From positions 34,083,950 to 34,147,949 of the forward strand of contig OX424569.1 of the NCBI GenBank assembly GCA_949152475.1: a stretch of 64,000 bases of DNA. The letters are read 5' to 3'. This document shows positions 1 through 48,480 of the stretch, piece by piece. Made by a program: the position numbers and the translations under genes. This stretch comes from Terebella lapidaria. Lineage: Eukaryota; Annelida; Polychaeta; Terebellida; Terebellidae. The notes beneath the pieces were generated by a model. That model had not been told where the DNA came from, searched no databases, and worked only from the letters and a program-made list of their open reading frames with translations. Positions within the stretch are counted from its first letter, which is position 1; every line of letters starts with the position of its first letter.

Positions 1-335
1 TATTTGTGAATAGTGTGATGGAAGGACTATTTCGTACGCGGGAGCGTCAAATGCGTCTCCTGCTCGGCTCACAACTAGCAGACTACTACGTCGATCAGGA
101 GCCGTGTGATTTGGTCGCGGAGGACCTTATCGAGTTCCCGGATGTCTCGTACAGTCTCGCGATGAAGGGAGAGAATGAGCTTTTGAGCGAGATTGACGCG
201 GCACTTGGACGACTTCTCGGCGGGACGATGTTGATGGAGCGGTTGGAGCAGAAGTGGCTGAGAGGAACCTGTCGGCGACACGGGACTCTGCCCACACTTC
301 AAGACACGACAACATACCAGGGTGATCATTCATAA
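1..335 (+). CDS. Partial exon: C-terminal half of an ionotropic glutamate receptor-like ligand-binding domain (LBD1)
   Basis: The frame is open from the window edge and reads as the end of lobe S2 of a kainate-type LBD. It has the helix and strand that normally precede the conserved ligand-contact glutamate, then PCDL, a helix around SEIDAALGRLL, and KWLRGTC. The two cysteines match the conserved LBD disulfide. In GluK receptors the strand reads LLMEST; here it reads LLLGSQ, so the glutamate that holds the ligand amino group is replaced. A stop comes about 17 codons after the last Cys, so no M4 membrane helix follows in this exon. Possible donors at 271 and 322 would both leave phase 1, which does not fit the phase-0 acceptor at 1323. 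A joined two-LBD protein would therefore need an unseen small exon; otherwise this is the end of a separate tandem gene. The family call is fairly firm; the gene structure is not. Confidence 0.6.
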   Translation, partial: FVNSVMEGLFRTRERQMRLLLGSQLADYYVDQEPCDLVAEDLIEFPDVSYSLAMKGENELLSEIDAALGRLLGGTMLMERLEQKWLRGTCRRHGTLPTLQDTTTYQGDHS

Positions 336-570
336 TAGATGTAAACTGGTTTTGGTCTGAGCATAGATTAGCATACTCGGAAAGATCCGTTATGATCTCA
401 CGTGTAACTATGAACAACAATTGTTCGATGGAACTATTCAAGTTTATTTTTTATTACGAATTAATGTTTCTGCTGTCAATCTGAGTCTGTGTTTGCATTT
501 AATTGAATCGGCCTTCAGAGCGGCGAGTTACGGGAAAGAGGCGAGTCGTTATCACTTCTCTCATGGTGAG

Positions 571-1322: not shown

Positions 1323-1505
1323 ATGGAGCCTTTTTTGATGCGATCTACAAAACGAGGGGTGGATTTCGAGGGATATATCGCTGATCTGATTCACCAGATG
1401 GCGCGGGTGGTGCCATTTGAGTATGAGTGGAAGATAAAGAGACGGTTTGGACGTCAACGAAACGACGGGTCCTGGACAGGCGTAATCGGGGGTCTCATAG
1501 CAGAG
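1323..1505 (+). CDS. Exon: first part of lobe S1 of an iGluR-like ligand-binding domain (LBD2)
   Basis: The exon follows a pyrimidine-rich acceptor (CTTCCACCCCAG) and is phase 0 at both ends. It encodes 61 residues beginning MEPFLMRS, with FEGYIADLIHQ, then RNDGSW.GVIGGLI. This is the standard S1 signature (EPF.M, FEGY..DL, G.W.GM..ELI) of kainate/AMPA receptors. The exon ends just after the GLI motif, at the same place as the conserved kainate-receptor exon boundary before the (K/E)AD..v.P segment. The donor is GTTCGT, weaker than consensus. The beta strand that normally precedes EPF (L.V.T.LE) is not visible, so at least one more upstream exon is expected, perhaps within 336-1322. Confidence 0.75.
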
Positions 1506-1780
1506 GTTCGTCACACTCCTTCCAACAGCAGAATATAACAGTCATTAGTGACCGAACCAGTCTGACTGTATCCACTTGATAACTTTTTCCCACCGCATAA
1601 TTAGATCCAATATATGTAAAAAAAAACCGCGGTAGGTAAATGTTTTACTGTCATGAGGCACATGTATGTAAAAGACTAGAAGCAATCATTAATCCCACAT
1701 AAAGGTGGTAGCATGCTTTCCATAGATGTGGTTGACTGTTCTAAACCAAGCTTTCTGACGAATCTTTCTGTTTTCTGCAG

Positions 1781-3334
1781 GAAGCCGACTTCGCTGCCGG
1801 ACCGTTCATTGTTGATGAGAGACAGAAATCTTTCATATCGTTCTCCAAACCATTCCTGGAGTCGACCCTGTCCTTGCTGGTGACCTCCCCAGCTCCGGAC
1901 AGAGGTCTGTCGGTACAGCTGGTCGAGGATCTACTCAACCAGACAGCCTACGACTTCGGGGTCGTCCACAACAGCCCCATCGCCAAGCGCCTCAAGAGGT
2001 CGCGACTGCCACTCTACAGGAAACTCTGGAAGAAACTGAAAGTGAAAGACAACGAAAATCGAATTGAAACCCTAGCTGAAGGAATACAGAGAGTGCGTAG
2101 TGGAAATTTCGCCTTGATTTTGGAATCGACGGACGCGACGCTGCTATCGTCACAGATTCCGTGCGATTTACTGTCGATATCACAGTATCTAAGCGTCATG
2201 AATTACGCGTTCGCGACTAAACGAAGTAGTCCACTGGTCGAGCAGCTAAACCGAGCGCTGGTACAGCTCCAGCAAGATGGTGTGCTCCAAGCTTTGTTTC
2301 ACAAATGGTGGAACTCTGACGCGTGTGTGAACTATGTAAAAGAAACATTTCCAGCTACTGAACCAACCACAGTGAGTACTCCTATTGCAACAACCACTGA
2401 CGAGCCGGAGGTGATCCCTGCTCCCATCTTGCCCAACTTCGCTGATGTTGACCTAGATGCTCTTCTGGGTCTCGCGACAAACCCGCCGTCGCTGCCGGTA
2501 GATGTCGTCTATGAAGACCTGGAAGTGGACAGAGAGAACTTTGACATAGACAGGATATTTCTGACGTCTCCGGTCAGCGCTTTCACACCACAGCGTTCTC
2601 TGACCAATGACGTGTCACCGATAGGCGGCAGCACGGAGCCTGTGGTGCCTTCTCCAGAAGGTGTTTACTCTTTTCCTGTTGACTGGGAAAGTGGCTTATC
2701 AAACAGTTCCGATATACCTATCTATGAAAAACCCAAAGATGAGTCTCTGAGTTCTGAAAGTCAGAACGTCACGGAATCATCAGAGGATTTACAGTTTGGC
2801 GGCTCTCCAGTTACCAGTTCAACAACAACTGAATCAACAACGACAGCTACAACTATACCAGTGATGGACACGTCCACAAGGAAACGTAAACGGACAAGAA
2901 AACCTGGAAGACGAAAGAACAAGAAAAACAGACGAACGACCACATTTCCACCCACGTCACCATTGTTGACAGAGGAAGATAAATCACGTGACTGGTCACA
3001 TGACTTTAACCGGGATTACAATTGGTTCCTCGCTACTGAACGACCGAGAATGCAAGAATATGAAATTGTCGTTCACAGTAACGACTCAGATACCGAAAGA
3101 CAACCATTCACGACTTATATTCATCGTAATAAAAACAAAGACTTGTCATATACAGTGCACAATGATTTAGTAAAAACTACACAGTCGACACGCACGGCAA
3201 CACACATTGATTCTGGAGTATCACCGCAGGCTGGCGCTACCAGCAAAGCTGTACTGTTCGTTCTTGTTGTACATTTGTTGATCTTTGGCTGGCCCAGTAG
3301 TATCTCAGACTGCAAGGAAAACTGTAACCACTAG
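1781..3334 (+). CDS. Last exon: pore-less kainate-receptor-like LBD2 with Thr/Ser-rich stalk and C-terminal hydrophobic segment
   Basis: After a strong acceptor (TTTCTGTTTTCTGCAG) the frame continues in phase from the exon at 1323; together they give 578 residues. Residues 62-95 finish S1 (EADFAAGPF....ERQK, then FSKPF). The next residues, TSPAPDRG, lead straight into S2 (AYDFGVVHNS, LAEGIQRV, LILEST, PCDL, HKWWNSDAC). The roughly 130-residue M1-pore-M3 block that every channel-forming iGluR has at this point is absent from the genomic DNA, and no intron is available to hold it. Cys189 and Cys243 match the LBD disulfide and Glu176 matches the ligand-binding glutamate. M4 is also missing. Instead there is a stalk of about 300 residues, rich in Thr/Ser/Pro, with a Lys/Arg cluster near residues 428-447. 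A hydrophobic run at about 551-566 is followed by a short polar tail. It is probably a surface-anchored or GPI-type extracellular LBD protein, not a channel. Confidence 0.75.
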   Translation, partial: EADFAAGPFIVDERQKSFISFSKPFLESTLSLLVTSPAPDRGLSVQLVEDLLNQTAYDFGVVHNSPIAKRLKRSRLPLYRKLWKKLKVKDNENRIETLAEGIQRVRSGNFALILESTDATLLSSQIPCDLLSISQYLSVMNYAFATKRSSPLVEQLNRALVQLQQDGVLQALFHKWWNSDACVNYVKETFPATEPTTVSTPIATTTDEPEVIPAPILPNFADVDLDALLGLATNPPSLPVDVVYEDLEVDRENFDIDRIFLTSPVSAFTPQRSLTNDVSPIGGSTEPVVPSPEGVYSFPVDWESGLSNSSDIPIYEKPKDESLSSESQNVTESSEDLQFGGSPVTSSTTTESTTTATTIPVMDTSTRKRKRTRKPGRRKNKKNRRTTTFPPTSPLLTEEDKSRDWSHDFNRDYNWFLATERPRMQEYEIVVHSNDSDTERQPFTTYIHRNKNKDLSYTVHNDLVKTTQSTRTATHIDSGVSPQAGATSKAVLFVLVVHLLIFGWPSSISDCKENCNH

Positions 3335-22943: not shown

Positions 22944-24436
22944 GCATGTATCCATGAATTGATGGCACTGCACTGACACGTGCACGGGATACATGTATCT
23001 GATGGCACTGCACTGACACGTGCACGGGATACATGTATCTGATGGCACTGCACTGACACGTGCACGGGATACATGTATCTGATGGCACTGCACTGACACG
23101 CACACGGGATACATGTATCTGATGGCACTGCACTGACACGTGTACGACACGGGATACATGTATCTGATGGCACTGCACTGACACATGCACGGGATGCATG
23201 TATCTGATGGCACTGCACTGACACGTGCACGGGATTCATGTATCTGATGGCACTGCACTGACACGTGCACGGGATACATGTATCTGATGGCACTGCACTG
23301 ACACGTGCACGGGATTCATGTATCTGATGGCACTGCACTGACACGTGCACGGGATACATGTATCTGATGGCACTGCACTGACATGTGCACGGGATACATG
23401 TATCTGATGGCACTGCACTGACACGTGCACGGGATACATGTATCTGATGGCACTGCACTGACACGTGCACGGGATACATGTATCTGATGGCACTGCACTG
23501 ACACGTGCATGGGATACATGTATCTGATGGCACTGCACTGACACGTGCGCGGGATACATGTATCTGATGGCACTGCACTGACACGTGCACGGGATACATG
23601 TATCTGATGGCACTGCACTGACACGTGCACGGGATACATGTATCTGACGGCACTGCACTGACACGTGCATGGAATACATGTATCTGATGGCACTGCACTG
23701 ACACATGCACGGGATACATGTATCTGATGGCACTGCACTGACACGTGCGCGGGATACATGTATCTGATGGCACTGCACTGACACGTGCACGGGATACATG
23801 TATCTGATGGCACTGCACTGACACGTGCACGGGATACATGTATCTGGTGGCACTGCACTGACACGTGCACGGGATACATGTATCTGGTGGCACTGCACTG
23901 ACACGTGCACGGGGTACATGTATCAGATGGCACTGCACTAACACGTGCCCAGGATACATGTATCCGATGGCACTGCACTGACACGTGCATGGAATACATG
24001 TATCTGATGGCACTGCACTGACACGTGCCCAGGATACATGTATCCGATGGCACTGCACTGACACGTGCATGGAATACATGTATCTGATGGCACTGCACTG
24101 ACACGTGCACAGGATACATGTATCTGGTGGCACTGCACTGACACGTGCACGGGATACATGTATCTGATGGCACTGCACTGACACGTGCACGGGATACATA
24201 TATCTGATGGCACTGCACTGACACGTGCACGGGTACATGTATCTGATGGCACTGTACTGACACGTGCACGGGATATATGTATCTGATGGCACTGCACTGA
24301 CACGTGCACGGGTACATGTATCTGATGGCACTGCACTGACACGCGCACGGGATACATGTATCTGATGGCACTGCACTGACACGTGCACGGGATACATGTA
24401 TCCGATGGCACTGCACTGAAATGTGCTCGGTACATG
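22944..24436. repeat. 40-bp satellite array, about 37 units
   Basis: The unit is GATGGCACTGCACTGACACG followed by TGCACGGGATACATGTATCT. Most units differ at only one or two positions, mainly at CpG sites (CACGTGCAC, CATGTGCAC, CACGTGCGC, CACGTGCAT). One longer unit lies near 23140 and a few lack one base near 24230-24330. The unit carries CACGTG, TGCAC/GTGCA and TACATGTA palindromes. Because 40 is not a multiple of three, each minus-strand frame cycles through all three readings, and none holds a stop. This creates open frames of up to 510 codons that I regard as artefacts. Confidence 0.95.
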
Positions 24437-26821: not shown

Positions 26822-27456
26822 AAAGTGTACAAATAAAAGTGAATAAATAAATAAGAAAAAAAGATTAAATAGATAAAACTTCTATATTTACGAACAAAAT
26901 ATTTGAAGCCAATGGAGAAGAACACAAATGTATGGCTATCATATATCGACCTATTGCTAATCTGGCTAATGACTCCAATGATGCCAATATAAAAAATAAA
27001 GGTAAAGTTTTAATCAACATATTTGCCATACATGTACTAATATAGTCATTCATTTTTTTTCTCCTGCCATTTACAGGGTTATCTCTTGAAGGCTTCTTGT
27101 GTCATCTACAAAGGACACCGCCTTGAGGCCAGGATCAGACCGGTTAAAAACAAACACTTCGATCACTTGATGTGATTTCCACATGCAAAGATCAGATGTA
27201 GAACGGAATGGACTATGGGAGTTTAACGGGCCATGTTTGGCTATAGTCTTGTAATCGCAATAGATAAGGCTTGGCGTAGATCAAATAAACAAAACATAAA
27301 ACGCCGCGAGAGATCCGCAGCCCACTGTTTACAAAGTGTCGATGTGATCGCCGAAAATAAATACCAATTGTTGAAGTGACTTCTTTCTGCCGAGTGAGGA
27401 AAGAAAACAACGACGAATAAACATATATGTGATGTTGCACTTATTTGGAGACGTTC
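24437..27456. other. Upstream region of the GATA gene
   Basis: Intergenic DNA with a C-rich tract (25377-25394), an AAAT microsatellite (26780-26822) and a palindromic GATA site (25811-25823). A pyrimidine stretch ending CCATTTACAG at 27067-27076 could be the acceptor of a 5' UTR exon of the GATA gene. An in-frame stop at 27430-27432 closes the GATA reading frame upstream of its start. Confidence 0.45.
25811..25823. promoter_or_regulatory. Palindromic double GATA site
   Basis: CTTATCAGATAAG contains two GATA cores back to back in the ATC(A/T)GATA arrangement. Vertebrate GATA1 studies established this as a high-affinity site engaged by both zinc fingers. It lies about 1.6 kb upstream of the GATA coding start, which fits autoregulation. 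The sequence is observed; its use is inferred. Confidence 0.5.
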
Positions 27457-28485
27457 ATGCTTAGAAAGATGGAGAGCAGTCAACCGGAAAAGCCCAACCG
27501 CGTGGAGGGAGATTCCAAGGCTTCTGATTGGTCAGCGCAGAAGGAGGGCGGAGCCAATCAGCGGGTAATATCAAACACACCCCGTGATAACAGTGGGGAG
27601 GCCAGCGAGGCAGACATAGCTACAATAGCTCTATTAAAGACGGAAGACCCCCAGAATCGACAAGAGATAAAAGACCCCGTTAAATTGTCCGAGGATCAAT
27701 CAACAGAGTCTTCCATATACCGGCACCAGCCGACGACATTTAGCGGCACCGCAGAGTCGTTATCAGTTAGCAGCTCGGTGGTTGATTTACAAAGTGCCGA
27801 CGGCAGTGGCGGAGTGATAAAGGTTATCACGAGTGATAACAAGACGGCAGTCGGCAGCAGCGAGAGCGACAGGGGGGAGGAAGCTCCCACTGTAATCTAC
27901 TCGATTCCAGAGGATCCTAGCGCTTACGTCAACGGTCCACCCGGACTCACGGACACCGTTACTCTACAGAAAGTCATCGATTCACAAGGAAGCACCAACT
28001 ATACATACATCTTACCCCAACACTTCGTCCAGCCCTCGACGATCCAAGCGCTAAGGGCAAACACCAACCCAAGCGGGATTCTTATGGACATTCTAACGGG
28101 AACTAAACCCGTTGAAAGACTCCCGACTGAAGACTTCACAGAGAGAGACTCGGCTGAGATGGTTCCTGGGCCTGACAACTCGCAAACTGAAGTCCACAAC
28201 TCAGCAGCGATGGTCGAAACAGCAGTTGCACAACATAATCATGACGGTACCAATGACGTTACCATAGAAACACGCGTCCCGTACGTTAAAGCGGACCCCC
28301 CTCGCGCTGCGTCCATGTCCCCAACAAACCTCAATCCCGGGGCCGCCCCTCCCTCCATGCTGACACCCATCCACGGGTGTTACCCACCCGTCTCCTGGGC
28401 AACCCCCCGTCCCAGCTCTCAGCCAGGACATCACACCTTCCAGAACCACAGCCCACACGCAGACAGTCCACGGGGAAACCACCAG
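27457..28485 (+). CDS. GATA4/5/6: GATA4/5/6-type transcription factor, coding exon 1 (N-terminal region)
   Basis: The exon encodes 343 residues, low in predicted structure and rich in Ser, Thr, Pro and acidic residues; I recognise no domain in it. An in-frame TGA at 27430 lies upstream. The first ATG (27457) has a weak context; the ATG at 27469 (AAGATGG) has a stronger one and may be the main start, four codons later. The donor is CAG|GTTAGT in phase 0, matching the phase-0 acceptor at 28837. Linkage to the zinc-finger exons rests on phase, strand and order. Its length makes the N-terminus much longer than in vertebrate GATA4-6 (total about 400-600 residues), so an upstream or separate gene is the alternative. 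Confidence 0.65.
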
Positions 28486-28836
28486 GTTAGTCACGTTATA
28501 GTCAGTGGTCAGAAATAACAAAATGTTGTGATTGTAAAAGTCTACTGCTAATAGACTAAGTGCAAGTCTTACGATAATCGCTGTATCTATCCCTGCCTAT
28601 GATACTTAGCTTTCACTCTATTGCAAATTGTACATAACTTATAAAACAAAATAGAAGGTCAAAGCGTACAGCTTCTATAAGTTCTTCTAAGTAATCCATT
28701 ATTAATCCATTCGGTATCATTCACCTAGCATTCTCATATGTTCACTCATGAATATGAGTACAAGTAGGTCCTGCAGGTTGAACGTTCGAGCGAGGTCATA
28801 TCGATACTTGAGTTGCAATGTTTCTATTTATTGCAG
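28486..28836 (+). other. GATA gene intron 1
   Basis: 351-bp phase-0 intron with donor GTTAGT and acceptor TTTCTATTTATTGCAG. If the donor were missed, the frame would read through into a stop at about 28516-28518. Confidence 0.65.
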
Positions 28837-29995
28837 GTGGCATGTGAGACGGAATCTCTGTATGCGGCGTCCACGCACCACCAGATCCCGACCGGCTCGG
28901 CCCGAGGACTGGAGCCGGCCCGGGGAGTAGAGTCCCCAGCACCTCGCCCCACGCCCGAGTACGCGCCTATGTCGGCAGTCGTGCCCCCGATGCACGCACC
29001 GAGCCCCGCCGATCTGACTCCCCGGGTCGCGGACCTGACTCCGCGACCCTCGGACACCTCAGACAGCTCGGCCAGCCCCGCGCAGACCCCGGGTCGCGAG
29101 GCAGAGTCTCCGTACTACGGGACGCAGACCGTGTATGGGTCAGGTCTGGGCTACGTCAACGTCCATCCCCCCGGGGAGTACAGCGGTCACGGTGGCTACA
29201 CGACGTACAGTGCCGCCACTCTCGGACCGCCGCCGGCGCTTCAGTCCATCACCAGCAGCGGCTACGTGACGTCCTCACCGTCCGCGGTCAGCGGTCTCCA
29301 AGAGGCGCTGGTGCAGGGGACGTCATCTGCGAATGCACCCAAGTCGCTACTCTCCGCATTGCAAGCCCCAGCGATGTCGCACATGACCGCGGCCGGGGTC
29401 GCAGGCGATGTCAGTGCGATGTCCCGCGGGCGCGTGGGCAGCCCGGTGTCCGCAGTATCCGGGGGTCGCGCGACCGTCTCACCTGCGGGTGGAGTCGTTG
29501 TCATGGATACACAGCACCTAGCAACGCAACAACAGCAATCCCAGACTCCCTCACGCGAACAGCAACAGCAAGACGCGTCTGACTACACAACATCATCTAC
29601 AACCGACGTCCAATGGCCAACGCAACATCAACAACAACAACCAACACATCAGCAACAGCAATCAGCGCAACAGCAACAATACCTGAACCCAAACTACACA
29701 GACTCTGCCCTTCAAACGATGACGGATCGCTACGCCACCGCCTATCCGAGCGGCCAGGACTCACAGGCTACTGTGACGCCGAACAGTCCCTCGGCCTACG
29801 GAGCTCTGGACCAGTACGGACGGCTGCAGAACGGGTCGGGAGCTTTGGAATACAGCCAGCTGCCGAGCGATCTCTCACACGGGGCGGGCACAGCTGTGGA
29901 CCAGTCGGGAGGGACAGCTGGCTCCAGCATTAGCTCTCTTCTCCTGAACAGCAACATGGCACTTAAAGGCTACTCCAACATGCCTGGACAGATGG
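28837..29995 (+). CDS. GATA4/5/6: GATA4/5/6-type transcription factor, coding exon 2 (transactivation region, Gln-rich)
   Basis: The exon encodes residues 344 to about 729. The first part is Pro/Ser-rich with Tyr-Gly motifs (YYGTQTVYGSG, GYVNVHPPGEY), like the tyrosine-containing transactivation segments of GATA4-6. A strongly Gln-rich stretch (about residues 575-625, many CAA/CAG) follows, then a Ser/Gly-rich end close to SSISSLLLNSN. It is much more GC- and CpG-rich than the surrounding introns, notably at 28870-29500. The exon ends ATGG|GTGAGT in phase 1, matching the finger-1 exon. No DNA-binding motif is present; the role is inferred from position. Confidence 0.8.
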
Positions 29996-32214
29996 GTGAG
30001 TCTGTTGTTTTAAGGCTCGCTTCAGTTAAATTCACCAATAACTAAAGTTAAATATAAAACCAAATTCAAATTATATTGAACAAAAGACCCAAGACGACGT
30101 GACTCGATGTATCTGAAAGAGTGGTGATAATTATCATAAACAAAACATTACATTATGTGAGTGACACGAATGTTAGTCTGTCCGCCTATTTTATTATATC
30201 TGCGCCAATTGATAACACAATATTTACAATTTTAACACCATTTCTTCGAATCAATTCTGGATAACTTGGAACAGCTTCAATCCCTCAAAACGAGGTGCCT
30301 GGTTCTGTTTATCAAGTAATCATAATTTTAATGCGCTGTGACGGTGACCGGTCTGCAAACAGAAATGTACGTCTGTCGCGTGAACACAATGCAAATAACG
30401 CAACGGTTCATTTGCAGTTAATGTGCCGGCGATCCAATCTGGTATCATAAACATAAAGGCAGAAAAGTTATTCTAATGCCTGATAAAGCTGGATTTGTTT
30501 TCTTACACTAATTATTCTCATTTTTCGCGGCAAAAATATATGGAAAGCTACGTTAGAGTCTAGGGGCTGATTTGTACTGAATGATAAATCGCTAGGGTTT
30601 TTTTTACCGTAAATTGCAGCACTAAATTGTGCCGACGGGGCTCAAAGACGTTAATATAAACAAATGCCACCAAATATGTCCACATTTCGGCTTAAAACAA
30701 AGATACTTGTAGCATCTGAGGAGCTCAGCATTTTCCTTCTTGGGAACTTCAAGACAAATTGACATTTCTTCTTAGCGTAGCTATCAGATGCGTAAACGTA
30801 AGCGGTCGCTTATAACATGCACTTGTTTCGTCAAACATAACACTGACAAAAAGCGAGAGTTTACTTTGCTGTTGTGTAAAATCGGTAAAAGGGCCTTCTA
30901 CCCGCAAAGATCAAAGGATCAAAAAGAAAGGCTGGGTTTTTTCACTAGGTTTGGAAATCCAGGATTTGGGCTGGTTTAACTGTGCCGGCAAAATCACGAG
31001 CGAGTGGGCGCAAAGAAAATATGTACACGTACCGAGACAGAAACACGCGACATTACGGTACCCACAATGCATTGGCACGGATGTCGTCTGAGCATTCATG
31101 ACTCATAATAACAAACATCGGGTGATGAAGCGCTAATTGCTATTACGTCATTTTCCCTCTTTTTTTTGCATCCCGTTTGCTGACAAAGGCTACAAACGAA
31201 AATGAAAATACACACAAATCATCCTTGTATAATATACACGCATTTGGTAAATTGGGATATAAATTACGAAGCTAGTGAAGACATATTTCGATATTATTAC
31301 GAAGCTAGTAAAGACATTTCGATTCCAATTCTATCTGAGCCTATTATGCCACACTAAAATATATAGTGCAAATAATGATAGGCATGATTACAAAGGATAT
31401 ATGCATTGACCTTTCTCTGTAAATGTTACGGAACATGGCGCCTGCCTTTTAAAAGCTTTTAAAAACCAATATGTCGATTATAATTCTTCTAACCTTGCTC
31501 ATCAAATAACTCATTTCGTATTGTCGATTACGAACACAACACGAAAGATCATTCACTGAAAACGAAATGGGAATGATACCATCAGTCACCACCCTGTATG
31601 GCAAACTTGAGAATTAATAAGAAGTATTTACTTTACAAGCGAGTGAGACTTGCTATAAATCAAACTTGGCACGATTGATATTTTCCCAGGTAAAATACAA
31701 GTCGTGCTAATACTCTCAAACCCACATGACACTCGGCGTATACTCTCAAACTCTGACACGCCAAGCCTCGTGCATTGGTCAAACAGTCGCTGAAGTCACT
31801 GAAGTCACAGATGGTAGACTAACCTGAGCAAACATTGCACCGACATAAAGCGGATAATTCAGAGCGGGACTAGACTGTCTTTTGATCAACGTTTGATTTC
31901 CTGATCTGCATGATCTTATCAAATGAATGGAAACTATGATTGGCTAAGCCACTTAGTAACTGAAACTCCCATGCTGGTTTTTGGAAGATTAAAAGAAAAA
32001 ATCTCACAAGGAGCAAATAAAGCTATATTATTCAAGTATTTGATATATATATACATGGGTAAGTATGAAAGCTTTCTATGTAGACGCCAGACTAGGACAC
32101 CATAAACAAGACATTGACTCTAGATTTGACACCACGCCGTAAGTTCCTTCACAGCCCAGATGTCCACATGCACATGTTACATGTATTCTAAGACTTTTCC
32201 CTGCTGTCCTCCAG
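29996..32214 (+). other. GATA gene intron 2
   Basis: 2.2-kb phase-1 intron from donor GTGAGT to acceptor GTCCTCCAG. Nothing coding or repetitive is recognised in it. It could hold enhancers, which need comparative data to see. Confidence 0.7.
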
Positions 32215-32387
32215 CTTCAGACGACGCCGAGTTTTTCGCCGAGGGACGAGAATGCGTTAACTGTGGAGCGATCTCCACCCCGCTGTGGCGCCGGGACGGG
32301 ACTGGACACTATCTGTGCAATGCATGCGGTCTCTATCATAAGGTGAATGGAGTAAATCGGCCGCCCAGAATACAACCCAAGCGAATG
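32215..32387 (+). CDS. GATA4/5/6: GATA4/5/6-type transcription factor, coding exon 3 (N-terminal zinc finger)
   Basis: Encodes a canonical GATA finger: CVNC, 17 residues ([17 protein letters not shown]), CNAC, then [12 protein letters not shown]. The Cys pairs are at about residues 743/746 and 764/767. This finger binds GATC-type and palindromic sites and contacts FOG-type cofactors in other animals. The segment after NRP reads PRIQPKRM rather than the usual LIKPQRRL, a local divergence. The acceptor region has two AGs six bases apart (CCTCCAG|CTTCAG|ACGAC), both in frame, so forms with or without Ala-Ser are possible. The exon ends ATG|GTGAAT in phase 0. Identity as a GATA finger is certain. 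Confidence 0.95.
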
Positions 32388-32912
32388 GTGAATATAAGTC
32401 AATTATACAGTGCCAAACGAACCAAAATCATTATATAATTGATTTAACGTTTACTTCATTCAATTGGGCTTGTGATTCGCTTGATGTAAAACCTGTTCTT
32501 GATTAGTACAGATTTTAGGTCATTATTTCAATACACATGTCCTGGTGATTATGGAATATGCTGTAAAAAATTTGCACATATGCCTTGAAGTAAAATAATG
32601 AAATGTAGACTCGAAAGATATAATTTATTTTAGATCTCGCTCGGAATTAATACTGGGTGTTGATTCTACGTCTATGGGAAGAAAACTGAACTAAAAGGCC
32701 TGAATGCATATCGATTACATTTTTATTGGGACCTTTTGTATGTTACTAATTTTCGAAACTGATAAATATATATTCGAGGGCAAAATGTGTACCATATACA
32801 TTTAGTCTGGAAATAATTATTTCACACACAGTAATAACTGCGCATGTGTCCGTACAACCCCATATAACCACCTCCAAACAGATGTCTTAGCCCCATGTTC
32901 ATTGGCTTGCAG
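32388..32912 (+). other. GATA gene intron 3
   Basis: 525-bp phase-0 intron between the two finger exons, AT-rich, nothing else recognised. Confidence 0.75.
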
Positions 32913-33071
32913 CAGTCTGGGACGTCTAGTTCGCCCTCCATCCAGCAGGGGGCGCGCCGGATCGGCCTGCAATGCGCCAATTGTTTGACGACGACTACTA
33001 CCCTCTGGCGGCGAAATAACGAGGGAGAACCGGTGTGTAACGCGTGTGGACTGTACTACAAGCTGCACCAG
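32913..33071 (+). CDS. GATA4/5/6: GATA4/5/6-type transcription factor, coding exon 4 (C-terminal zinc finger)
   Basis: Encodes [11 protein letters not shown], 17 residues ([17 protein letters not shown]), CNAC and GLYYKLHQ. The Cys pairs are at about residues 808/811 and 829/832. This is the main WGATAR-binding finger. ARR.GL.CANC and NNEGEPV match the GATA4/5/6 class better than the GATA1/2/3 class (ARRAGT.CANC, NHNGDPV). The acceptor is a NAGNAG pair (TTGCAG|CAG|TCT), so one Gln between the fingers may be present or absent. The exon ends CACCAG|GTCAGT in phase 0, inside the finger's basic extension, which is completed by exon 5. Confidence 0.95.
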
Positions 33072-33410
33072 GTCAGTGCAAATACATACTGTTGTTTACT
33101 AATGAGATGTGCAGCATGAATATTTAAGAATTTCACATGTACTGATATAGTTTACGTAACGAAATAATTGAGTTATCTTACGCTGACATAATAGCAAACA
33201 TCCAGCACGTTTTCTGGTATGCCCAGTATCTAGTTAGGGCCTAATTCATAGTCTACTAGTTGACTGTGTTATCGTTATCTTAATGTGTATTAGAAACTGT
33301 TTTTTTTCCCTGTCATGAATCCGTCACTTCTCAAACAATGTAACCCTATATTGACGTTAAAAAGTTGTATGTGTTTACCTGGTCAGTTTAACAGAGTGAT
33401 CGGACCACCA
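33072..33410 (+). other. GATA gene intron 4, unique 5' part
   Basis: About 340 bp of unique AT-rich intron before the 57-bp array. No feature seen. Confidence 0.7.
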
Positions 33411-34664
33411 CAGACTATATTGTGTTTTAGTGTCTCAGGATAACTACAATATTCACGTGTCAGGGGTCAGACTATATTGTGCTTTAGTGTCTCAGGATAA
33501 CTACAATATTCACGTGTTACAGGTCAGACTATAGTGTGCTTTAGTGTCTCAGGATAACTACAATATTTTTACGTGTTACAGGTCAGACTATATCGTGCTT
33601 TAGTGTCTCAGGATAACTACAATATTCACGTGTCAGGGGTCAGACTATATCGTGCTTTAGTGTCTCAGGATAACTACAATATTCACGTGTTATGGATCAG
33701 ACTATAGTGTGCTTTAGTGTCTCAGGATAACTACAATATTCACGTGTTACAGGTCAGACTATATCGTGCTTTAGTGTCTCAGGATAACTACAATATTCAC
33801 GTGTTATGGATCAGACTATATTGTGCTTTAGTGTCTCAGGATAAGTACAATATTCACGTGTTATGGATCAGACTATATTGTGCTTTAGTGTCTCAGGATA
33901 ACTACAATATTCACGTGTCAGGGGTCAGACTATATCGTGCTTTAGTGTCTCAGGATAACTACAATATTCACGTGTTATGGATCAGACTATATCGTGCTTT
34001 AGTGTCTCAGGATAACTACAATATTCACGTGTCAGTGGTCAGATTATATTGTGGTTTAGTGTCTCAGGATAACTACAATATTCACATGTTACAGGTCAGA
34101 TTATATTGTGCTTTAGTGTCTCAGGATAACTACAACATTCACGTGTCAGGGGTCAGACTATATTGTGCTTTAGTGTCTCAGGATAACTACAATATTCACG
34201 TGTCAGGGGTCAGACTATATTGTGCTTTGGTGTTTCAGGATAAATACAATATTCACGTGTTAGGGGTCAGACTATATCGTGCTTTAGTGTCTCAGGATAA
34301 CTACAATATTCACGTGTCAGGGGTCAGACTATATTGTGCTTTAGTGTCTCAGGATAACTACAATATTCACGTGTTAGGGGTCAGACTATATTGTGCTTTA
34401 GTGTCTCAGGATAACTACAATATTCACGTGTTACGGGTCAGACTATATTGTGCTTTAGTGTCTCAGGATAACTACAATATTCACGTGTAACGGGTCAGAC
34501 TATATTGTGCTTTAGTGTCTCAGGATAACTACAATATTCACGTGTTACGGGTCAGACTATATTGTGCTTTAGTGTCTCAGGATAACTACAATATTCACGT
34601 GTTACGGGTCAGCCTATATTGTGCTTTAGTGTCTCAGGATAACTACAATATTCACGTGTTACAG
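33411..34664 (+). repeat. 57-bp intronic minisatellite (22 units) ending at the splice acceptor
   Basis: The unit is about GTGTCTCAGGATAACTACAA, TATTCACGTGTTACAGGTCA, GACTATATTGTGCTTTA. Twenty-two units fill the 3' end of intron 4, and the last unit stops exactly at TTACAG, the acceptor of exon 5. Each unit carries a branch-point-like TAAC, a TCAG, a further AG near the unit end and, in nearly all units, CACGTG. Variants at the acceptor-like position are TTACAG, TTACGGG, TTAGGGG, TCAGGGG and TTATGGA. The period is a multiple of three, and the frame that leads into exon 5 holds only one stop after 33717 (TAA at 34488-34490). Confidence 0.95.
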
Positions 34665-34806
34665 GTTCCTCGGCCTCTGTCAATGAAAAAAGAAGGAATT
34701 CAGACACGGAAAAGGAAACCAAAAGGAATGGGGAAATCCAAGTCCAAGAAAGCCGCTAAAGAGGAAAACAGTCCAGATGAGGGAAAGTCGGCCGTCAAAG
34801 TGGAAG
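34665..34806 (+). CDS. GATA4/5/6: GATA4/5/6-type transcription factor, coding exon 5 (basic tail of the C-terminal finger)
   Basis: Encodes [20 protein letters not shown] followed by a Lys-rich segment. V-P-R-P-L-(A/S)-M-(R/K)[12 protein letters not shown] is diagnostic of GATA4/5/6; the GATA1/2/3 class has [20 protein letters not shown]. This basic arm contacts the minor groove and contains the nuclear localisation signal in relatives. The exon starts in phase 0 directly after the last 57-bp repeat and ends GTGGAAG|GTATGA in phase 1. Confidence 0.95.
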
Positions 34807-35149
34807 GTATGACGTCACAATAACTATTTTATGTCAAAAGTCAAGGTCATGACTGTGTGGATATTCGTCAAACATAATTCGGTTATGTGATTCTAAATTC
34901 GTGTTGGAGGTAAATTTTGCCTTTGTACAAAAAGAAATACTTCAAGGATGGAGTATACAATGAACTGTTATGAAGCCTTTTATACAAAGGCGTTATGTAG
35001 ATGAAAACTAGCCTAAGAGCTAAGGGATGTTAGCAGATGCTCGGTTTTAGGACAGAAAATCAAAAAACGGTATATTTTTATTATTGACATGGAAGGTCAA
35101 ATTCAAGGTCTCAACTCAAAACGCTGCACATGATTTGTAATTTGACTAA
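34807..35149 (+). other. GATA gene intron 5, 5' part
   Basis: Intron sequence. From about 35090 it resembles the start of a dispersed repeat (tracts like GGAAGGTCAAATTCAAGGTC) found widely in invertebrate genomes. No coding potential recognised. Confidence 0.5.
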
Positions 35150-35450
35150 AAGCTCTGTTTTAGAGCATACTATATTTGCGCAAGCATATAACTCTTTGAA
35201 GGAACTCTCTAACTCTGTTTTAGAGCATTCAATGTGTGCTCAAGCATAGAACTCTTTCGAAGGAACTCTCTAACTCTATTTTAGAGTATTCAATGTGTGC
35301 TCAAGCATAGAACTCTTTGAAGGAACTCTCTAACTCTGTTTTAGAGCATTCAATGTGTGCTCAAGCATACAACTCTTTGAAGAAACTCTCTAACTCTGTT
35401 TTAGAGCATTCAATGTGTGCTCAAGCATACAACTCTTTGAAGAAGAGCGT
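35150..35450 (+). repeat. 60-bp tandem repeat, five units
   Basis: Unit of 60 bp containing AACTCTTTGAAGGAACTCTC, TAACTCTGTTTTAGAGCATT and CAATGTGTGCTCAAGCATAG. Units three to five are almost identical; the first is diverged. It sits inside the dispersed repeat that ends near 35650. Confidence 0.9.
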
Positions 35451-35660
35451 CACTGGAATTGTCAAGTCCGAGTGTCGGACAAAATCGGACCCAAACAGAT
35501 TTTCGTCGAAAATTACGTTCATGTATATTTGTGCAAAGAAACATTCGACGGTAAACTTTAAAGGCAAAAATGTTGATAACGGATAACGACGACGGATGTA
35601 ACACCATGCCAATTGGTTATCGGACCAAAAGTTCGGTAACCTAAAGATTATGCAAATTGT
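35451..35660 (+). repeat. Dispersed repeat tail, same family as 63690-63960
   Basis: Shares with 63690-63960 the order TTTGTGCAAAG, ATTCGACGGTAAACTT.AA, GGCAAAAATGTTGAT, a GACGACGACG tract and a TATCGGA.CAAA end. Non-coding; probably a non-autonomous element or its tail. Confidence 0.55.
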
Positions 35661-35712
35661 ATGAAATAGAATCAATTCCGCCGTTAAACTTCAGAGCCTA
35701 ATTGATAGATTG

Positions 35713-36345
35713 TACTTGTCATATATCTATTTCATGGGGTTTGTTTCGGATTTGTAAGTTTTTTTCATAGGTTGTTGGGCAGTTGTATACTAATTCCATC
35801 AGGTGTACTGTAGAAACAACTACATTTACCACACTGTCTGCCCCTGATGACGCCAGTGTGGTTTTTGATAAGATATTTGGTCGGGGTTTATTTCTATTGG
35901 AAACTGTTGTATTTTATGCTTGTTATTGGAATCATCAAAATTTGGCTGTATTGGTGGTAATAGATTGATACTTGCATTCATACAACTGAGCCGGTGTCAC
36001 TGCTGGTGGACGTTAATTCTGTCCCCGAGGATACCATCAACTCGATAGCCTTTTGGCTTGTGATTAGGTACTTATGTACTTGTCATATATCTATTCCATG
36101 GGGTTTGTTTCGGATTTCTAAGTTTTTTTCATAGGTTGTTGGGCAGTTGTATACTAATTCCATCAGGTGTACAGTAGAAAAAACTACATTTACCACACTG
36201 TCTGCCCCTGATGACGCCAGTGTGGTTTTTGATAAGATATTTGGTCGGGGTTTATTTCTATTGCAGAGTGTTGTATTTTATGTTTGTTATTGGAATCATC
36301 AAAATTTGGCTGTATTGGTGGTAATAGATTGATACTTACATTGTT
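35713..36345 (+). repeat. 364-bp tandem duplication before GATA exon 6
   Basis: The segment from about 35713 recurs from 36077 with few substitutions; the second copy is shortened and ends about 20 bp before the acceptor of exon 6. Both copies contain CTGATGACGCCAGTGTGG and a 61-codon open frame. I recognise no protein in it. Confidence 0.85.
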
Positions 36346-36364
36346 CTCTCTCGCCCATGCACAG

Positions 36365-36978
36365 ATGTACCGACGACGCTACAGCCCTCCATCCCGGCCA
36401 TCAGCGCCCCGTCCGGAGCTCAGGTGTCCAGGAGTCAGCTTGACTCCCAGGCGGCTGAGTACAAATCTTATTACTCGAACCCGGCCTCGCAGGGCGCCAT
36501 ACAGGCCCTGCTTGCTAACCCCACCCACCAGACACACTACCTACACCCCACATTGGACCACGGCCAGCCCGGCGTCATGGGCAGCTCCTCCACTGTACAC
36601 AGCTCCCTCCTCGCGGCACCCTCACAGCAAACTCTTACGTCATACGTCTCCCATGGCGACGCCATGTTATCCTCAATTAACACTTCCGGCTCGGTACTGC
36701 TCCCGGGTGTGACGTCCCTTCCGTACACGGCGGCGACTTCCGGTGCGCAGGATGGCGGAGCGGTGCCTTTCAGTCTTTATTCCTCACAGCACAGCTCTCT
36801 GTTTGGAGTGCCTTCACCACCAAAAGCTGTGCCAGTTCAGCTCTCAGACATGCCCGATAATGTGACTTCCTACCTTGGCGCAAACGGTGGAGAGCTGACT
36901 CATGGCAAACCACTGAATGCCGAACTTTCCTTGGTCAAAGCCGAACTCGGAGCCTTAACAACCACTGGCTCGAGTTGA
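36365..36978 (+). CDS. GATA4/5/6: GATA4/5/6-type transcription factor, last coding exon (C-terminal region)
   Basis: After acceptor CCCATGCACAG the exon continues in phase 1 (codon G|AT, Asp). It encodes about 204 residues ending at TGA 36976-36978. The segment is rich in Ser, Pro, Gly, Ala and His, with no folded domain, as in the C-termini of GATA4-6 where it serves in activation. The last residues include PLNAELSLVKAELGAL. Base composition is GC-rich relative to the introns, as in exons 1 and 2. With it the predicted protein is 1091 residues from the first ATG. Confidence 0.9.
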
Positions 36979-38637: not shown

Positions 38638-41600
38638 GCAATCATTAACGGAAAGTTTCCAATTGTCGATAGAAAGTTTATTGCTGTTGTATTCACTTGA
38701 GGCCGTTTCCTGTGTCTTTATGCATTGTATTTGTAGCATTCAGACTGAGAGAGATGTACAAAAACGCATCTATGTGAAGCGTACGTATATATTACTTGTT
38801 CACAGAAAGACAAGATACATGCATGTTCGTACAAATAACAGATATCGGTTGTTATAGGGTAATTTTATGAAAAGGTATGGACGGGTAGTAGTCACAATAA
38901 AATGAATGAAAAGCTACATATATCTTTCTTGTTTTTTTTATTTGTTTTATTTCATTGAATACATTGAAGATTTATATCATCGAGAACTCAACTGGTACAT
39001 TTGCACGTATTACGAGGTTCTCAACTATGTATACGGAAACATTATTAACTAATACCAGAAATCCATAAAATTAAAAACTCGACTAATGCATCTACATATA
39101 TTCCGAGGTGCTGAACTATGTATACGGCAACATTATTAACTAATACCAGAAATCCATATAGTTGAGAACACGACTGGTACATTTACACGTATTCCGAGGT
39201 GCTGAACTATGTATACGGAAACATTATTAACTAATACCAGAAATCCATATAATTGAGAACTCGACTGGTACATTTACACGTATTCCGAGGTGCTGAATTA
39301 TGTATACGGCAACATTATTAACTCATACCAGAAATCCATATAATTGAGAACTCGACTGGTACATTTACATGTATTCCGAGGTGCTGAACTATGTATACGG
39401 AAACATTATTAACTAATACCAGAAATCCATATAATTGAGAACTCGACTGGTATATTTACACGTATTCCGAGGTGCTGAACTATGTATACGGAAACATTAT
39501 TAACTAATACCAGAAATCCATATAATTGAGAACTCGACTGGTACATTTACATGTATTCCGAGGTGCTGAACTATGTATACGGAAACATTATTAACTAATA
39601 CCAGAAATCCATAAAATTAAAAACTCGACTAATGCATCTACATATATTCCGAGGTGCTGAACTATGTATACGGAAACATTATTAACTAATACCAGAAATC
39701 CATATAATTGAGAACTCTGCTGGTACATTTACATGTATTCCGAGGTGCTGAACTATGTATACGGAAACATTATTAACTAATACCAGAAATCCATATAATT
39801 GAGAACTCGACTGGTACATTTACATGTATTCCGAGGTGCTGAACTATGTATACGGAAACATTATTAACTAATACCAGAAATCCATATAATTGAGAACTCG
39901 ACTGGTATATTTACACGTATTCCGAGGTGCTGAACTATGTATACGGAAACATTATTAACTAATACCAGAAATCCATATAATTGAGAACTCGACTGGTATA
40001 TTTACACGTATTCCGAGGTGCTGAACTATGTATACGGAAACATTAATAACTGATACCAGAAATCCATATAATTGAGAACTCGACTGGTACATTTACATGT
40101 ATTCCGAGGTGCTGAACTATGTATACGGAAACATTATTAACTAATACCAGAAATCCATAAAATTAAAAACTCGACTAATGCATCTACATATATTCCGAGG
40201 TGCTGAACTATGTATACGGCAACATTATTAACTAATACCAGAAATCCATATAGTTGAGAACACGACTGGTACATTTACACGTATTCCGAGGCGCTGAACT
40301 ATGTATACGGAAACATTATTAACTAATACCAGAAATCCATATAATTGAGAACTCGACTGGTACATTTACACGTATTCTGAGGTGCTGAACTATGTATACA
40401 AAACATTATTAACTAATACCAGAAATCCATATAATTGAGAACTCTGCTGGTACATTTACACGTATTCCGAGGTGCTGAACTATGTATACGGAAACATTAT
40501 TAACTAATACCAGAAATCCATATAATTGAGAACTCGGCTGGTACATTTACACATATTCCGAGGTGCTTAACTATGTATACGGAAACATTATTAACTAATA
40601 CCAGAAATCCATAAAATCAAAAACTCGACTAATGCATCTACATATATTCCGAGGTGCTGAACTATGTATACGGCAACATTATAAACTAATACCAGAAATC
40701 CATATAGTTGAGAACACGACTGGTACATTTACACGTATTCTGAGGTGCTGAACTATGTATACGAAACATTATTAACTAATACCAGAAATCCATATAATTG
40801 AGAACGCGGCTGGTACATTTACACGTATTCCGAGGTGCTGAACTATGTATACGGCAACATTAACTAATACCAGAAATCCATATAATTGAGAACTTGACTG
40901 GTACATTTACACGTATTCCGAGTTGCTGAACTATGTATACGGAAACATTATTAACTAATACCAGAAATCCATATAATTGAGAACTCGGCTGGTACATTTA
41001 CATGTATTCCGAGGTGCTGAACTATGTATACGGAAACATTATTAACTAATACCAGAAATCCATATAGTTGAGAACTTGACTGGTACATTTACATGTATTC
41101 CGAGGTGCTGAACTATGTATACAGAAACATTATTAACTAATACCAGAAATCCATAAAATTAAAAACTCGACTAATGCATCTACATATATTCCGAGGTGCT
41201 GAACTATGTATACGGAAACATTATTAACTAATACCAGAAATCCATATAATTGAGAACTCTGCTGGTACATTTACACGTATTCCGAGGTGCTGAACTATGT
41301 ATACGGAAACATTATTAACTAATACCAGAAATCCATATAATTGAGAACTCTGCTGGTACATTTACACGTATTCCGAGGTGCTGAACTATGTATACGGAAA
41401 CATTATTAACTAATACCAGAAATCCATATAATTGAGAACTCTGCTGGTACATTTACACGTATTCTGAGGTGCTGAACTATGTATACGGAAACATTATTAA
41501 CTAATACCAGAAATCCATATAATTGAGAACTCTGCTGGTACATTTACACGTATTCCGAGGTGCTGAACTATGTATACGGAAACATTATTAACTAATACCA

Positions 41601-46900: not shown

Positions 46901-48480
46901 ATTTACACGTATTCTGAGGTGCTGAACTATGTATATGAAACATTATTAACTAATACCAGAAATCCATATAATTGAGAACTCTGCTGGTACATTTACACGT
47001 ATTCCGAGGCGCTGAACTATGTATACGGAAACATTATTAACTAATACCAGAAATCCATATAGTTGAGAACTCGACTGGTACATTTACACGTATTCTGAGG
47101 TGCTGAACTATGTATATGAAACATTATTAACTAATACCAGAAATCCATATAATTGAGAACTCTGCTGGTACATTTACACGTATTCCGAGGCGCTGAACTA
47201 TGTATACGGAAACATTATTAACTAATACCAGAAATCCATATAGTTGAGAACTCGACTGGTACATTTACACGTATTCCGAGGTGCTGAACTATGTATACGG
47301 AAACATTATTAACTAATACCAGAAATCCATATAATTGAGAACTCTGCTGGTACATTTACACGTATTCTGAGGTGCTGAACTATGTATATGAAACATTATT
47401 AACTAATACCAGAAATCCATATAATTGAGAACTCTGCTGGTACATTTACACGTATTCCGAGGCGCTGAACTATGTATACGGAAACATTATTAACTAATAC
47501 CAGAAATCCATATAGTTGAGAACTCGACTGGTACATTTACACGTATTCCGAGGTGCTGAACTATGTATACGGAAACATTATTAACTAATACCAGAAATCC
47601 ATATAGTTGAGAACTCGACTGGTACATTTACATGTATTCCGAGGTGCTGAACTATGTATACGGAAACATTATTAACTAATACCAGAAATCCATATAATTG
47701 AGAACTCGGCTGGTACATTTACATGTATTCCGAGGTGCTGAACTATGTATACGGAAACATTATTAACTAATACCAGAAATCCATATAGTTGAGAACTCGA
47801 CTGGTACATTTACATGTATTCCGAGGTGCTGAACTATGTATACGGAAACATTATTAACTAATACCAGAAATCCATATAATTGAGAACTCGGCTGGTACAT
47901 TTACACGTATTCCGAGGTGCTGAACTATGTATACAGAAACATTATTAACTAATACCAGAAATCCATATAATTGAGAACTCTGCTGGTACATTTACACGTA
48001 TTCCGAGGTGCTGAACTATGTATATGAAACATTATTAACTAATACCAGAAATCCATATAGTTGAGAACTCGACTGGTACATTTACACGTATTCCGAGGCG
48101 CTGAACTATGTATACGGAAACATTATTAACTAATACCAGAAATCCATATAATTGAGAACTCGACTGGTACATTTACACGTATTCCGAGGTGCTGAACTAT
48201 GTATATGAAACATTATTAACTAATACCAGAAATCCATATAGTTGAGAACTCGACTGGTACATTTACACGTATTCCGAGGCGCTGAACTATGTATACGGAA
48301 ACATTATTAACTAATACCAGAAATCCATATAATTGAGAACTCGACTGGTACATTTACACGTATTCCGAGGCGCTGAACTATGTATACGGAAACATTATTA
48401 ACTAATACCAGAAATCCATATAATTGAGAACTCGGCTGGTACATTTACACGTATTCCGAGGTGCTGAACTATGTATATGA
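43945..48480. repeat. Higher-order repeat copy A within the 91-bp array (4,536 bp)
   Basis: Rare variants in this block recur 4,536 bp later: an AGAACTCGAC junction at 43981 and 48517, ACTCTG...ACACATATT at 44075 and 48611, and the shortened ACGTTTCC unit at 45544 and 50080. The block ends where the second copy begins, so it is a direct tandem duplication of about 50 units. Confidence 0.85.

What the first reader, a model, noticed from the sequence alone, without database searches (positions are those of the whole stretch)
1323..3334. Kainate-receptor-like ligand-binding domain without any channel block
Seen directly: S1 passes into S2 through about eight residues (TSPAPDRG), within one uninterrupted exon. 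In all channel-forming iGluRs this point holds M1, the pore loop and M3 (about 130 residues). M4 is also missing after the last LBD cysteine. The gene therefore encodes the natural counterpart of the soluble S1S2 constructs used in crystallography, placed on a stalk with a C-terminal hydrophobic anchor. Inference: a surface or shed ligand-binding protein, perhaps a scavenger, co-receptor or synaptic organiser. I do not know a described metazoan family with this layout.
Basis: partly seen in the sequence, partly recalled or inferred. Interest (0 to 1): 0.75.

Follow-up and report, generated by a model that had tools for sequence, protein, structure and literature searches.

The report
Glutamate-receptor binding domains without channels
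An animal gene carries the ligand-gripping part of a glutamate receptor twice over but no ion channel, and the same genome holds a family of such channel-less receptor heads that look tethered to the cell surface.

Summary
Window 1781-2326 reads from the end of S1 into S2 of an ionotropic glutamate receptor (iGluR) inside one exon, with a 24-residue junction where five channel genes of the same genome have 126-139. The domain matches the GluK1 ligand-binding domain (LBD) at E 1.8e-37.

The gene model needs correction. The ATG at 1323 is an internal exon start. A microexon (519-565) precedes it, and window 1-319 plus sequence upstream is a second channel-less LBD (GluK4, E 6.3e-20). The gene encodes at least two LBDs, a 306-residue Thr/Ser/Pro-rich stalk and one C-terminal hydrophobic segment; its N-terminus is not established.

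Decay is unlikely: I count 27 channel-less LBDs in 26 genes of this genome (perhaps an annelid), 24 of them on one chromosome. dN/dS is 0.05-0.28 in 8 paralog pairs. Paralog L033 reads as hydrophobic start, LBD and GPI-like tail, 335 aa. Most keep Arg485 (19 of 21); only 6 of 21 keep an acidic residue at 705.

Best reading: surface-tethered Venus-flytrap binding proteins made from iGluR genes, mostly not for glutamate. Ligand and role are inferred.

The parts
1..319 (+). 3' part of the S2 exon of LBD1 (first, channel-less LBD); the exon begins 229 bases upstream of the window (C16:34083721, L021:9422)
   Evidence: frame 3-335 reads FVNSVMEGLFRT...WLRGTC and lines up with S2 of this and other LBDs; weak on its own (GluA2 E 0.075; no Pfam match); whole LBD1 PF10613 1.4e-20, GluK4 6.3e-20; donor CAGG|GTGATC, phase 1, proposed
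519..565 (+). microexon: short linker and first strand of LBD2 (RRVTGKRRVVITSLM)
   Evidence: acceptor ttcag|AG, donor ATG|GTGAGT, phases fit; the same kind of microexon (xVTxxx|GT, phase 0) found in 6 of 10 paralog loci scanned
1323..1505 (+). S1 exon of LBD2 (MEPFLMRS...VIGGLIAE)
   Evidence: PF10613; acceptor ccccag|ATG; donor GAG|GTTCGT at the intron position of the paralogs
1781..1855 (+). end of S1 of LBD2 (EADFAAGPFIVDERQKSFISFSKPF), start of the terminal exon
1856..1927 (+). 24-residue S1-S2 junction that stands where M1-pore-M3 lies in channels
   Evidence: 126-139 in 5 of 5 channels measured; 24 in 18 of 19 aligned channel-less LBDs, 17 of 21 in a second alignment with two more rows
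1928..2326 (+). S2 of LBD2, ending at the last LBD cysteine
   Evidence: both S2 cysteines kept
2327..3244 (+). 306-residue stalk rich in Thr, Ser and Pro, without Cys
   Evidence: open frame, codon score, composition; no Pfam match (protein 4)
2879..2935 (+). polybasic stretch RKRKRTRKPGRRKNKKNRR in the stalk, with convertase-type motifs KRKR|T and KNRR|T
   Evidence: motif scan, 4 matches in the product, the other 2 inside LBD2; cleavage not tested
3248..3292 (+). C-terminal hydrophobic segment AVLFVLVVHLLIFGW, followed by 13 mostly polar residues and the stop
   Evidence: hydropathy

Best explanation
The gene belongs to a family of animal proteins made from ionotropic glutamate receptor genes by clean removal of the channel. 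An in-exon loss of about 100-115 codons fused S1 directly to S2, and M4 and the cytoplasmic tail gave way to a short C-terminal hydrophobic segment. Most members would be single Venus-flytrap LBDs tethered to the outer cell surface, probably by GPI; the window gene is a derived member with two LBDs in tandem on a long stalk. Shown: architecture, shared intron position, paralogs, purifying selection among paralogs, residue changes. Inferred: the tethered flytraps bind small extracellular ligands. The upper-lobe aromatic residue and Arg485 are mostly kept, so a carboxylate or other anion may still dock there; the lower-lobe Ser654, Thr655 and Glu705 are mostly replaced by hydrophobic residues or proline, so the ligand is mostly not an alpha-amino acid. 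With no channel and no cytoplasmic domain, signalling would need a partner, or the proteins act as capture, presenting or scavenging proteins. Tandem arrays with changed pockets suggest recognition of varied external cues. Both LBDs of the window gene have lost canonical glutamate residues, so I do not expect it to bind glutamate.
For: Junction inside one exon, 24 aa in 18 of 19 rows. Intron before the S2 exon at the same place and phase in 8 of 8 channel-less genes inspected and clearly in 4 of 7 channel genes inspected. 24 S1end-S2 matches without insert among 53 rows of a genome search with a paralog query, plus LBD1, L034 and L040 read by hand. No ANF_receptor match within 0.4 Mb of the C16 loci in the listed 112 (115 of 166 candidates scored). 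dN/dS 0.05-0.28 in 8 of 8 pairs that gave a value. L033: 4 exons, 335 aa, hydrophobic start, LBD, hydrophobic tail. Hydrophobic C-terminal segment with at most 19 residues after it in 19 of 20 paralog tails. Pocket: Arg485 19 of 21, Tyr or Phe at 450 16 of 17, acidic at 705 6 of 21, Pro at 705 13 of 21; channel rows 14 of 14 Arg485 and 13 of 14 acidic at 705. Tree: the 21 channel-less rows on one side of a branch, support 74/61.
Against: No RNA, protein or ligand data. Support for one origin is weak (74/61, not starred; 72% of bootstrap trees) and both window LBDs are long branches that meet. The 24-residue junction is not universal: L034 and L040 have 21, L030 24 or 25, LBD1 16 or 18 by alignment, and many rows are near-copies. 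Channels of this genome also vary in the pocket: Ser654 in 6 of 14, Thr655 in 8 of 14. GPI attachment was not predicted by a dedicated program; the tails of the 1.1-1.4 Mb cluster, L025, L030 and the window gene have 13-19 residues after the best hydrophobic stretch in most cases and fit a short membrane anchor as well; L040 is only mildly hydrophobic. Signal-peptide-like starts were seen only in L033 and L024. For the window gene a scan of about 15 kb upstream gave one weak candidate start, MWYRTFFLVDICMFNKRE at C16:34079773, which I do not trust. The single-sequence structure model failed (mean pLDDT 35.8).
Confidence: 0.6

Rival explanations
1. Channel partner or decoy: the tethered LBDs pair with the LBDs of real iGluR channels or compete with them for ligand, tuning glutamatergic signalling as non-conducting subunits.
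For: Same fold and ancestry as the channels of this genome; a few members keep a near-canonical pocket (C7 pair and C16:15.59: Pro478, Thr480, Arg485, Thr655, Glu705).
Against: Positions that (recalled) lie in the LBD back-to-back dimer face are lost in most: Glu486 kept in 3 of 21, Lys493 in 1 of 21 (window LBD2), against 10 of 14 and 11 of 14 channel rows. Most pockets are not canonical. No M4 for assembly.
Confidence: 0.15
2. Structural or recognition module without small ligand: the flytrap fold is kept as an extracellular interaction domain, the window gene being a stalked, shed or matrix-bound protein.
For: Window LBD1 and LBD2 have each lost key pocket residues; LBD1 has a shortened junction and a gap in early S2; long stalk with a polybasic stretch and convertase-type motifs.
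Against: Across the family the upper-lobe pocket is kept (Arg485 19 of 21), which fits a working pocket rather than a bare scaffold.
Confidence: 0.2
3. Decayed iGluR or annotation artefact: a pseudogene that lost its pore.
For: Some family copies carry stops or are split (C16:1185229 one TAA; fragments at C16:9062066, 1310357, 15022349, 15024852). Selection on the window gene itself could not be measured, since its only comparison is saturated.
Against: Long intact frames, similar junction lengths, microexon in 6 of 10 paralog loci, shared intron, purifying selection in 8 of 8 paralog pairs with a value.
Confidence: 0.04
4. Bacterial periplasmic binding protein acquired by gene transfer.
For: SBP_bac_3 passes its cut-off (47.7 bits against 26.4).
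Against: Lig_chan-Glu_bd scores higher (79.2 bits); the 60 solved-structure matches shown, of 376, are all named glutamate receptors; intron position shared with iGluR genes.
Confidence: 0.01

Closest known systems
Ionotropic glutamate receptors, kainate/AMPA type (LBD part)
   Same: S1 and S2 with the same fold by sequence (GluK1 E 1.8e-37), the S2 cysteines, the intron before the S2 exon
   Different: no M1-pore-M3, no M4, no amino-terminal domain found, no cytoplasmic tail seen; pocket and dimer positions mostly changed
Engineered S1S2 crystallography constructs (e.g. 2f34)
   Same: S1 joined to S2 by a short linker in place of the channel; the window's natural junction is 5 residues longer (24 against 19)
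   Different: natural, genome-encoded, in a multigene family, here in tandem
Ionotropic receptors (IRs) of protostomes
   Same: iGluR derivatives with altered glutamate-contact residues and gene expansions
   Different: IRs are characterised by the channel domain (PF10613 plus PF00060; PMC2924276, passage); these have none
Bacterial solute-binding proteins, family 3 (free or tethered flytraps)
   Same: stand-alone type II periplasmic-binding fold; may work like a tethered binding protein
   Different: sequence and intron position place these among iGluRs; no transporter partner known
Kainate-binding proteins of lower vertebrates (recalled, no call)
   Same: short iGluR relatives without amino-terminal domain
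   Different: those keep all membrane segments

Membership tests
Ionotropic glutamate receptor (channel subunit) | S1 + S2 ligand-binding domain | tested here: met
   PF10613 3.3e-22; GluK1 LBD 1.8e-37
Ionotropic glutamate receptor (channel subunit) | M1, pore loop and M3 between S1 and S2 (PF00060) | tested here: not met
   24-residue junction inside one exon; none of the 84 PF00060 matches in the genome lies at the locus
Ionotropic glutamate receptor (channel subunit) | M4 after S2 | tested here: not met
   one hydrophobic segment only, after a 306-residue stalk
Ionotropic glutamate receptor (channel subunit) | Amino-terminal domain (PF01094) | tested here: inconclusive
   no listed match within 0.4 Mb of the C16 loci (115 of 166 candidates scored); the window gene's N-terminus is not established
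Ionotropic glutamate receptor (channel subunit) | Glutamate contacts Arg485, Thr655, acidic 705 | tested here: not met
   window LBD2 Q, I, E; LBD1 R, P, G; not all channels of this genome keep Thr655 either (8 of 14)
Ionotropic receptor (IR) | PF10613 plus PF00060 channel | tested here: not met
   no PF00060 at the locus; definition from a passage of PMC2924276
Solute-binding protein family 3 | Best match to SBP_bac_3 rather than iGluR | tested here: not met
   47.7 against 79.2 bits; iGluR-type intron
GPI-anchored surface protein | N-terminal signal peptide | tested here: inconclusive
   hydrophobic starts in paralogs L033 and L024; only a weak candidate for the window gene; no dedicated predictor
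GPI-anchored surface protein | C-terminal hydrophobic attachment signal and no cytoplasmic domain | tested here: inconclusive
   19 of 20 paralog tails have such a segment; the window gene has 13 residues after its own
GPI-anchored surface protein | Lipid attachment at the membrane | not testable with these tools
   needs expressed protein

The most novel reading that the evidence does not exclude
A whole class of animal receptors has been overlooked: iGluR genes that shed their channel and became GPI-tethered Venus flytraps for non-amino-acid ligands, expanded by tandem duplication into an external-chemical recognition repertoire, with the window gene as a stalked two-flytrap form.
Probability: 0.35. 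Interest if true: 0.82.

Novelty: new variant of a known kind. Interest (0 to 1): 0.64.

Why it matters
[quoted passage not shown] If expressed, the family would show that the iGluR binding head can live without its channel in animals, would give ready-made soluble LBDs with new pockets, and would open the question of what ligand they see and how a tethered flytrap without a channel passes on a signal.

Tried and rejected
Rejected: the ATG at 1323 as start (splice acceptor, upstream microexon, second LBD in phase). Rejected as unlikely: pseudogene. Rejected: bacterial origin. Rejected: a hidden pore exon, since S1 end and S2 share an exon.

Led nowhere: a scan of viral contigs gave 5 pattern matches, none a relative; Rfam and tRNA scans were empty; AlphaFold on the contiguous S2 exon alone gave mean pLDDT 35.8 and was not used, so lobe closure was not tested; signal peptide and LBD1 microexon of the window gene were not established in about 15 kb scanned upstream, part of it a 34-bp minisatellite; 10 of the 126 window ORFs of 75 aa or more listed were given to Pfam and none matched. 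Animal proteomes, transcripts and named animal genomes could not be searched, so orthologs in other species are unknown. Eight paper searches (listings and abstract starts) and passages found by term in seven papers (PMC6307864, PMC2924276, PMC10642201, PMC12226733, PMC4890853, PMC12837371, PMC11748453) showed no description of channel-less LBD genes. No paper was read whole, and most subscription papers are not in that library.

Phylum: annelid is a guess from 7 matches to Eryth_link_C, PF16915, which I recall as the annelid haemoglobin linker domain, and none to Haemocyan_bet_s, PF14830 (whose output warns that absence is not shown).

Errors in my notebook, mended here: says the microexon was in 7 of 10 loci and that 20 kb upstream were scanned; the calls show 6 of 10 and about 15 kb.

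Full report
What was checked. The window's S1-S2 region was read directly. Exon 1323-1505 and exon 1781-3334 join in phase 0 to give an iGluR ligand-binding domain (LBD2). Pfam gives Lig_chan-Glu_bd at 3.3e-22 and SBP_bac_3 at 1.7e-12; among solved structures the best is the GluK1 LBD, E 1.8e-37, aligned from residue 6 to 258 of 261. The junction between S1 and S2 lies inside the terminal exon, so an alternative exon cannot simply supply a pore at that place.

Correct gene model. The codon ATG 1323 sits directly after a splice acceptor. A microexon at 519-565 (acceptor ttcag, donor ATG|GTGAGT) encodes RRVTGKRRVVITSLM, the first strand of the LBD. A pattern scan found such a microexon in 6 of 10 paralog loci (L024, L027, L028, L031, L032, L033) and not in L025, L034, L036 and L040. 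Upstream, window 3-319 is the end of an S2 lobe, and L021 (C16:34074300-34084299) holds its S1 exon (MDPFVALGYEP..., again after an ag|ATG) and the start of its S2 exon. The window piece alone is weak (no Pfam match; GluA2 E 0.075, below an unrelated top row), but the whole LBD1 is an iGluR LBD (PF10613 1.4e-20; GluK4 6.3e-20) and is channel-less too. A phase-1 donor (CAGG|GTGATC, a moderate site) and a phase-1 acceptor join it to LBD2 in one frame. That join is a proposal; RNA would settle it. The start of the gene is not established: a scan of about 15 kb upstream (C16:34068300-34083400) gave one weak signal-like candidate and two weak microexon-like ones.

Rest of the protein. After the last LBD cysteine come 306 residues with 42 Thr, 34 Ser, 28 Pro and no Cys, a polybasic stretch with two convertase-type motifs (the scan also hits twice inside LBD2), and one hydrophobic segment near the end. 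The frame of the stalk and tail stays open in 0 of 2000 shuffles; its first half scores as coding in the proposed frame, its second half is weaker (-0.018, still the best of six frames).

A family in the same genome. The window is G000:C16:34083950-34147949 of a 761.6 Mb genome in 438 contigs. With a 183-aa paralog exon as query, 53 matches at E up to 1e-3 were returned; 24 of them cover essentially the whole query without an insert: 22 on C16 (window LBD2 included) and 2 on C7. One of the 24, C16:1185229, has a TAA inside. Adding LBD1, L034 and L040, read by hand, I count 27 channel-less LBDs in 26 genes, 24 genes on C16 and 2 on C7; the tool calls its counts lower bounds. Fragments at C16:9062066, 1310357, 15022349 and 15024852 were not counted. 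Other matches in these lists are true channels, for example C2:13.41, whose exon carries M1, pore and M3, and C3:27.71 and C15:32.71, with pore exons; I did not inspect all the rest. PF00060 gave 84 genome matches and PF01094 gave 112 (115 of 166 candidates scored); none listed lies at the C16 or C7 family loci.

Conservation. I aligned 19 channel-less S1end-S2 rows; of the 27 LBDs, three near-identical copies, one with an internal stop, C16:1298909 and 1330446 were left out, and L034 and L040 were added later. The junction is 24 residues in 18 of 19, LBD1 having 16 and a gap in early S2. In a second alignment with all 21 rows it is 24 in 17, 25 in L030, 21 in L034 and L040, 18 in LBD1. Many of these rows are near-copies, so they are not independent witnesses. 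Five channels have 126-139, or 21 once M1-M3 is cut out. Both S2 cysteines are kept in 21 of 21. NG86 dN/dS is 0.05-0.28 in 8 of 8 pairs that gave a value (one of them with dS 2.2, near saturation); two further pairs, including window LBD2, are saturated, so selection on the window gene itself was not measured. The intron before the S2 exon has the same place and phase in 8 of 8 channel-less genes inspected; of 7 channels, L041-L044 show donor and acceptor there, L045 the acceptor only, L037 and L039 neither clearly. This makes the family iGluR genes that lost about 100-115 codons inside an exon.

Tree. Of 35 rows, 21 channel-less and 14 channel (13 of this genome and GluK1), the channel-less rows fall on one side of a branch; support 74/61, 72% of bootstraps; one change of state is enough. 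It favours one origin and does not prove it. WINDOW_LBD1 and WINDOW_LBD2 are long branches and their mutual nearness may be false. Several rows lack S1 or the end of S2.

Pocket and interface (GluA2 numbers; names of contacts recalled, except Arg485 and acidic 705, which PMC6307864 states in a passage). Of 21 channel-less rows, Arg485 is kept in 19 (window LBD2 Gln, L034 Lys); position 450 is Tyr or Phe in 16 of the 17 with S1 (LBD1 Ile); position 705 is acidic in 6, Pro in 13, Gln in 1, Gly in 1; Ser654 is kept in 0 and Thr655 in 4. The control matters: among 14 channel rows Arg485 is kept in 14 and an acidic 705 in 13, but Ser654 only in 6 and Thr655 in 8, so the 705 change is the distinctive one. 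The dimer positions Glu486 and Lys493 are kept in 3 and 1 of 21, against 10 and 11 of 14 channel rows. So the upper lobe of the pocket stays, the lower lobe and the dimer face change. The C7 pair and C16:15.59 keep the most canonical pockets.

Anchoring. Paralog L033 reads as four exons, 335 aa: hydrophobic start, one LBD, and the tail ...SRLYTVLLCAMFTVLFCNFVHWS. L024 has a similar start; starts were not sought in the other paralogs. Of 20 paralog tails, 19 have a C-terminal hydrophobic 12-mer (L040 mild, 1.53) with at most 19 residues after it and 0-2 basic residues; the exception, L031, stops early. L034 (...YSLASLVLSVILALSF) is a very GPI-like end. No dedicated GPI or topology program was available.

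How it most likely works. Shown: fold by sequence, absence of channel, hydrophobic ends in paralogs, selection among paralogs. Inferred: the proteins sit outside the cell and close on small ligands; changed lower-lobe residues argue against glutamate for most. The tandem and stalked form in the window, with both pockets altered, may be a recognition or matrix-binding variant. I commit to tethered binding proteins at 0.6.

Print. No description of such genes turned up in eight searches of open-access papers or in passages from seven papers. Three of those show why such genes would be missed, since they select on or define by the channel.

Noticed in passing
window 38974-55348: A 16.4-kb satellite array of a 91-bp unit, about 94% alike; further arrays at 56875-58227 (90 bp), 22953-24430 (40 bp) and 33411-34661 (57 bp). 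The window lies 157-221 kb from the end of the C16 sequence.
   Followed up: no
window 27433-36975: Long + strand ORFs (361, 425, 216 aa), rich in Ser, Gln, Pro, Ala, that look like exons of one regulatory-protein gene; no Pfam match.
   Followed up: partly
L039 3171-4750 (C15:32.71 Mb): In a true channel gene, a stretch reading SPVTSLRGLMAGIHGDDYSIGCVKGGNTY (start of S2) is repeated about a dozen times in tandem, unit 109 bp.
   Followed up: no
L030, upstream of its S2 exon (C16:33.75 Mb): Minisatellite open over long stretches (LVVKQTREIQAGVGNQ repeats) before the S2 exon; the nearest S1 match, C16:33777968, is about 24 kb away.
   Followed up: no
C16:14.71-14.83 Mb (L009-L012, L028, L029): Four near-identical channel-less genes 38-41 kb apart on the same strand; three have identical protein up to the last LBD cysteine while the tails differ.
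   Followed up: partly
C7:40310571 and C7:40387695 (L036, L047); C16:15.59 (L040): Channel-less members with the most canonical glutamate-contact residues; best candidates for amino-acid binding.
   Followed up: partly
window 61005-61496: ORF with ...GVVYKITCDDTFVGETGRSLGTRMKEH..., which by recall resembles a retroelement endonuclease fragment; no Pfam match.
   Followed up: no
L045 (C4:4.92 Mb), junction of S1 exon and next intron: This channel gene shows the usual acceptor but no GT donor at the usual place; the sequence could be a GC-AG intron.
   Followed up: no
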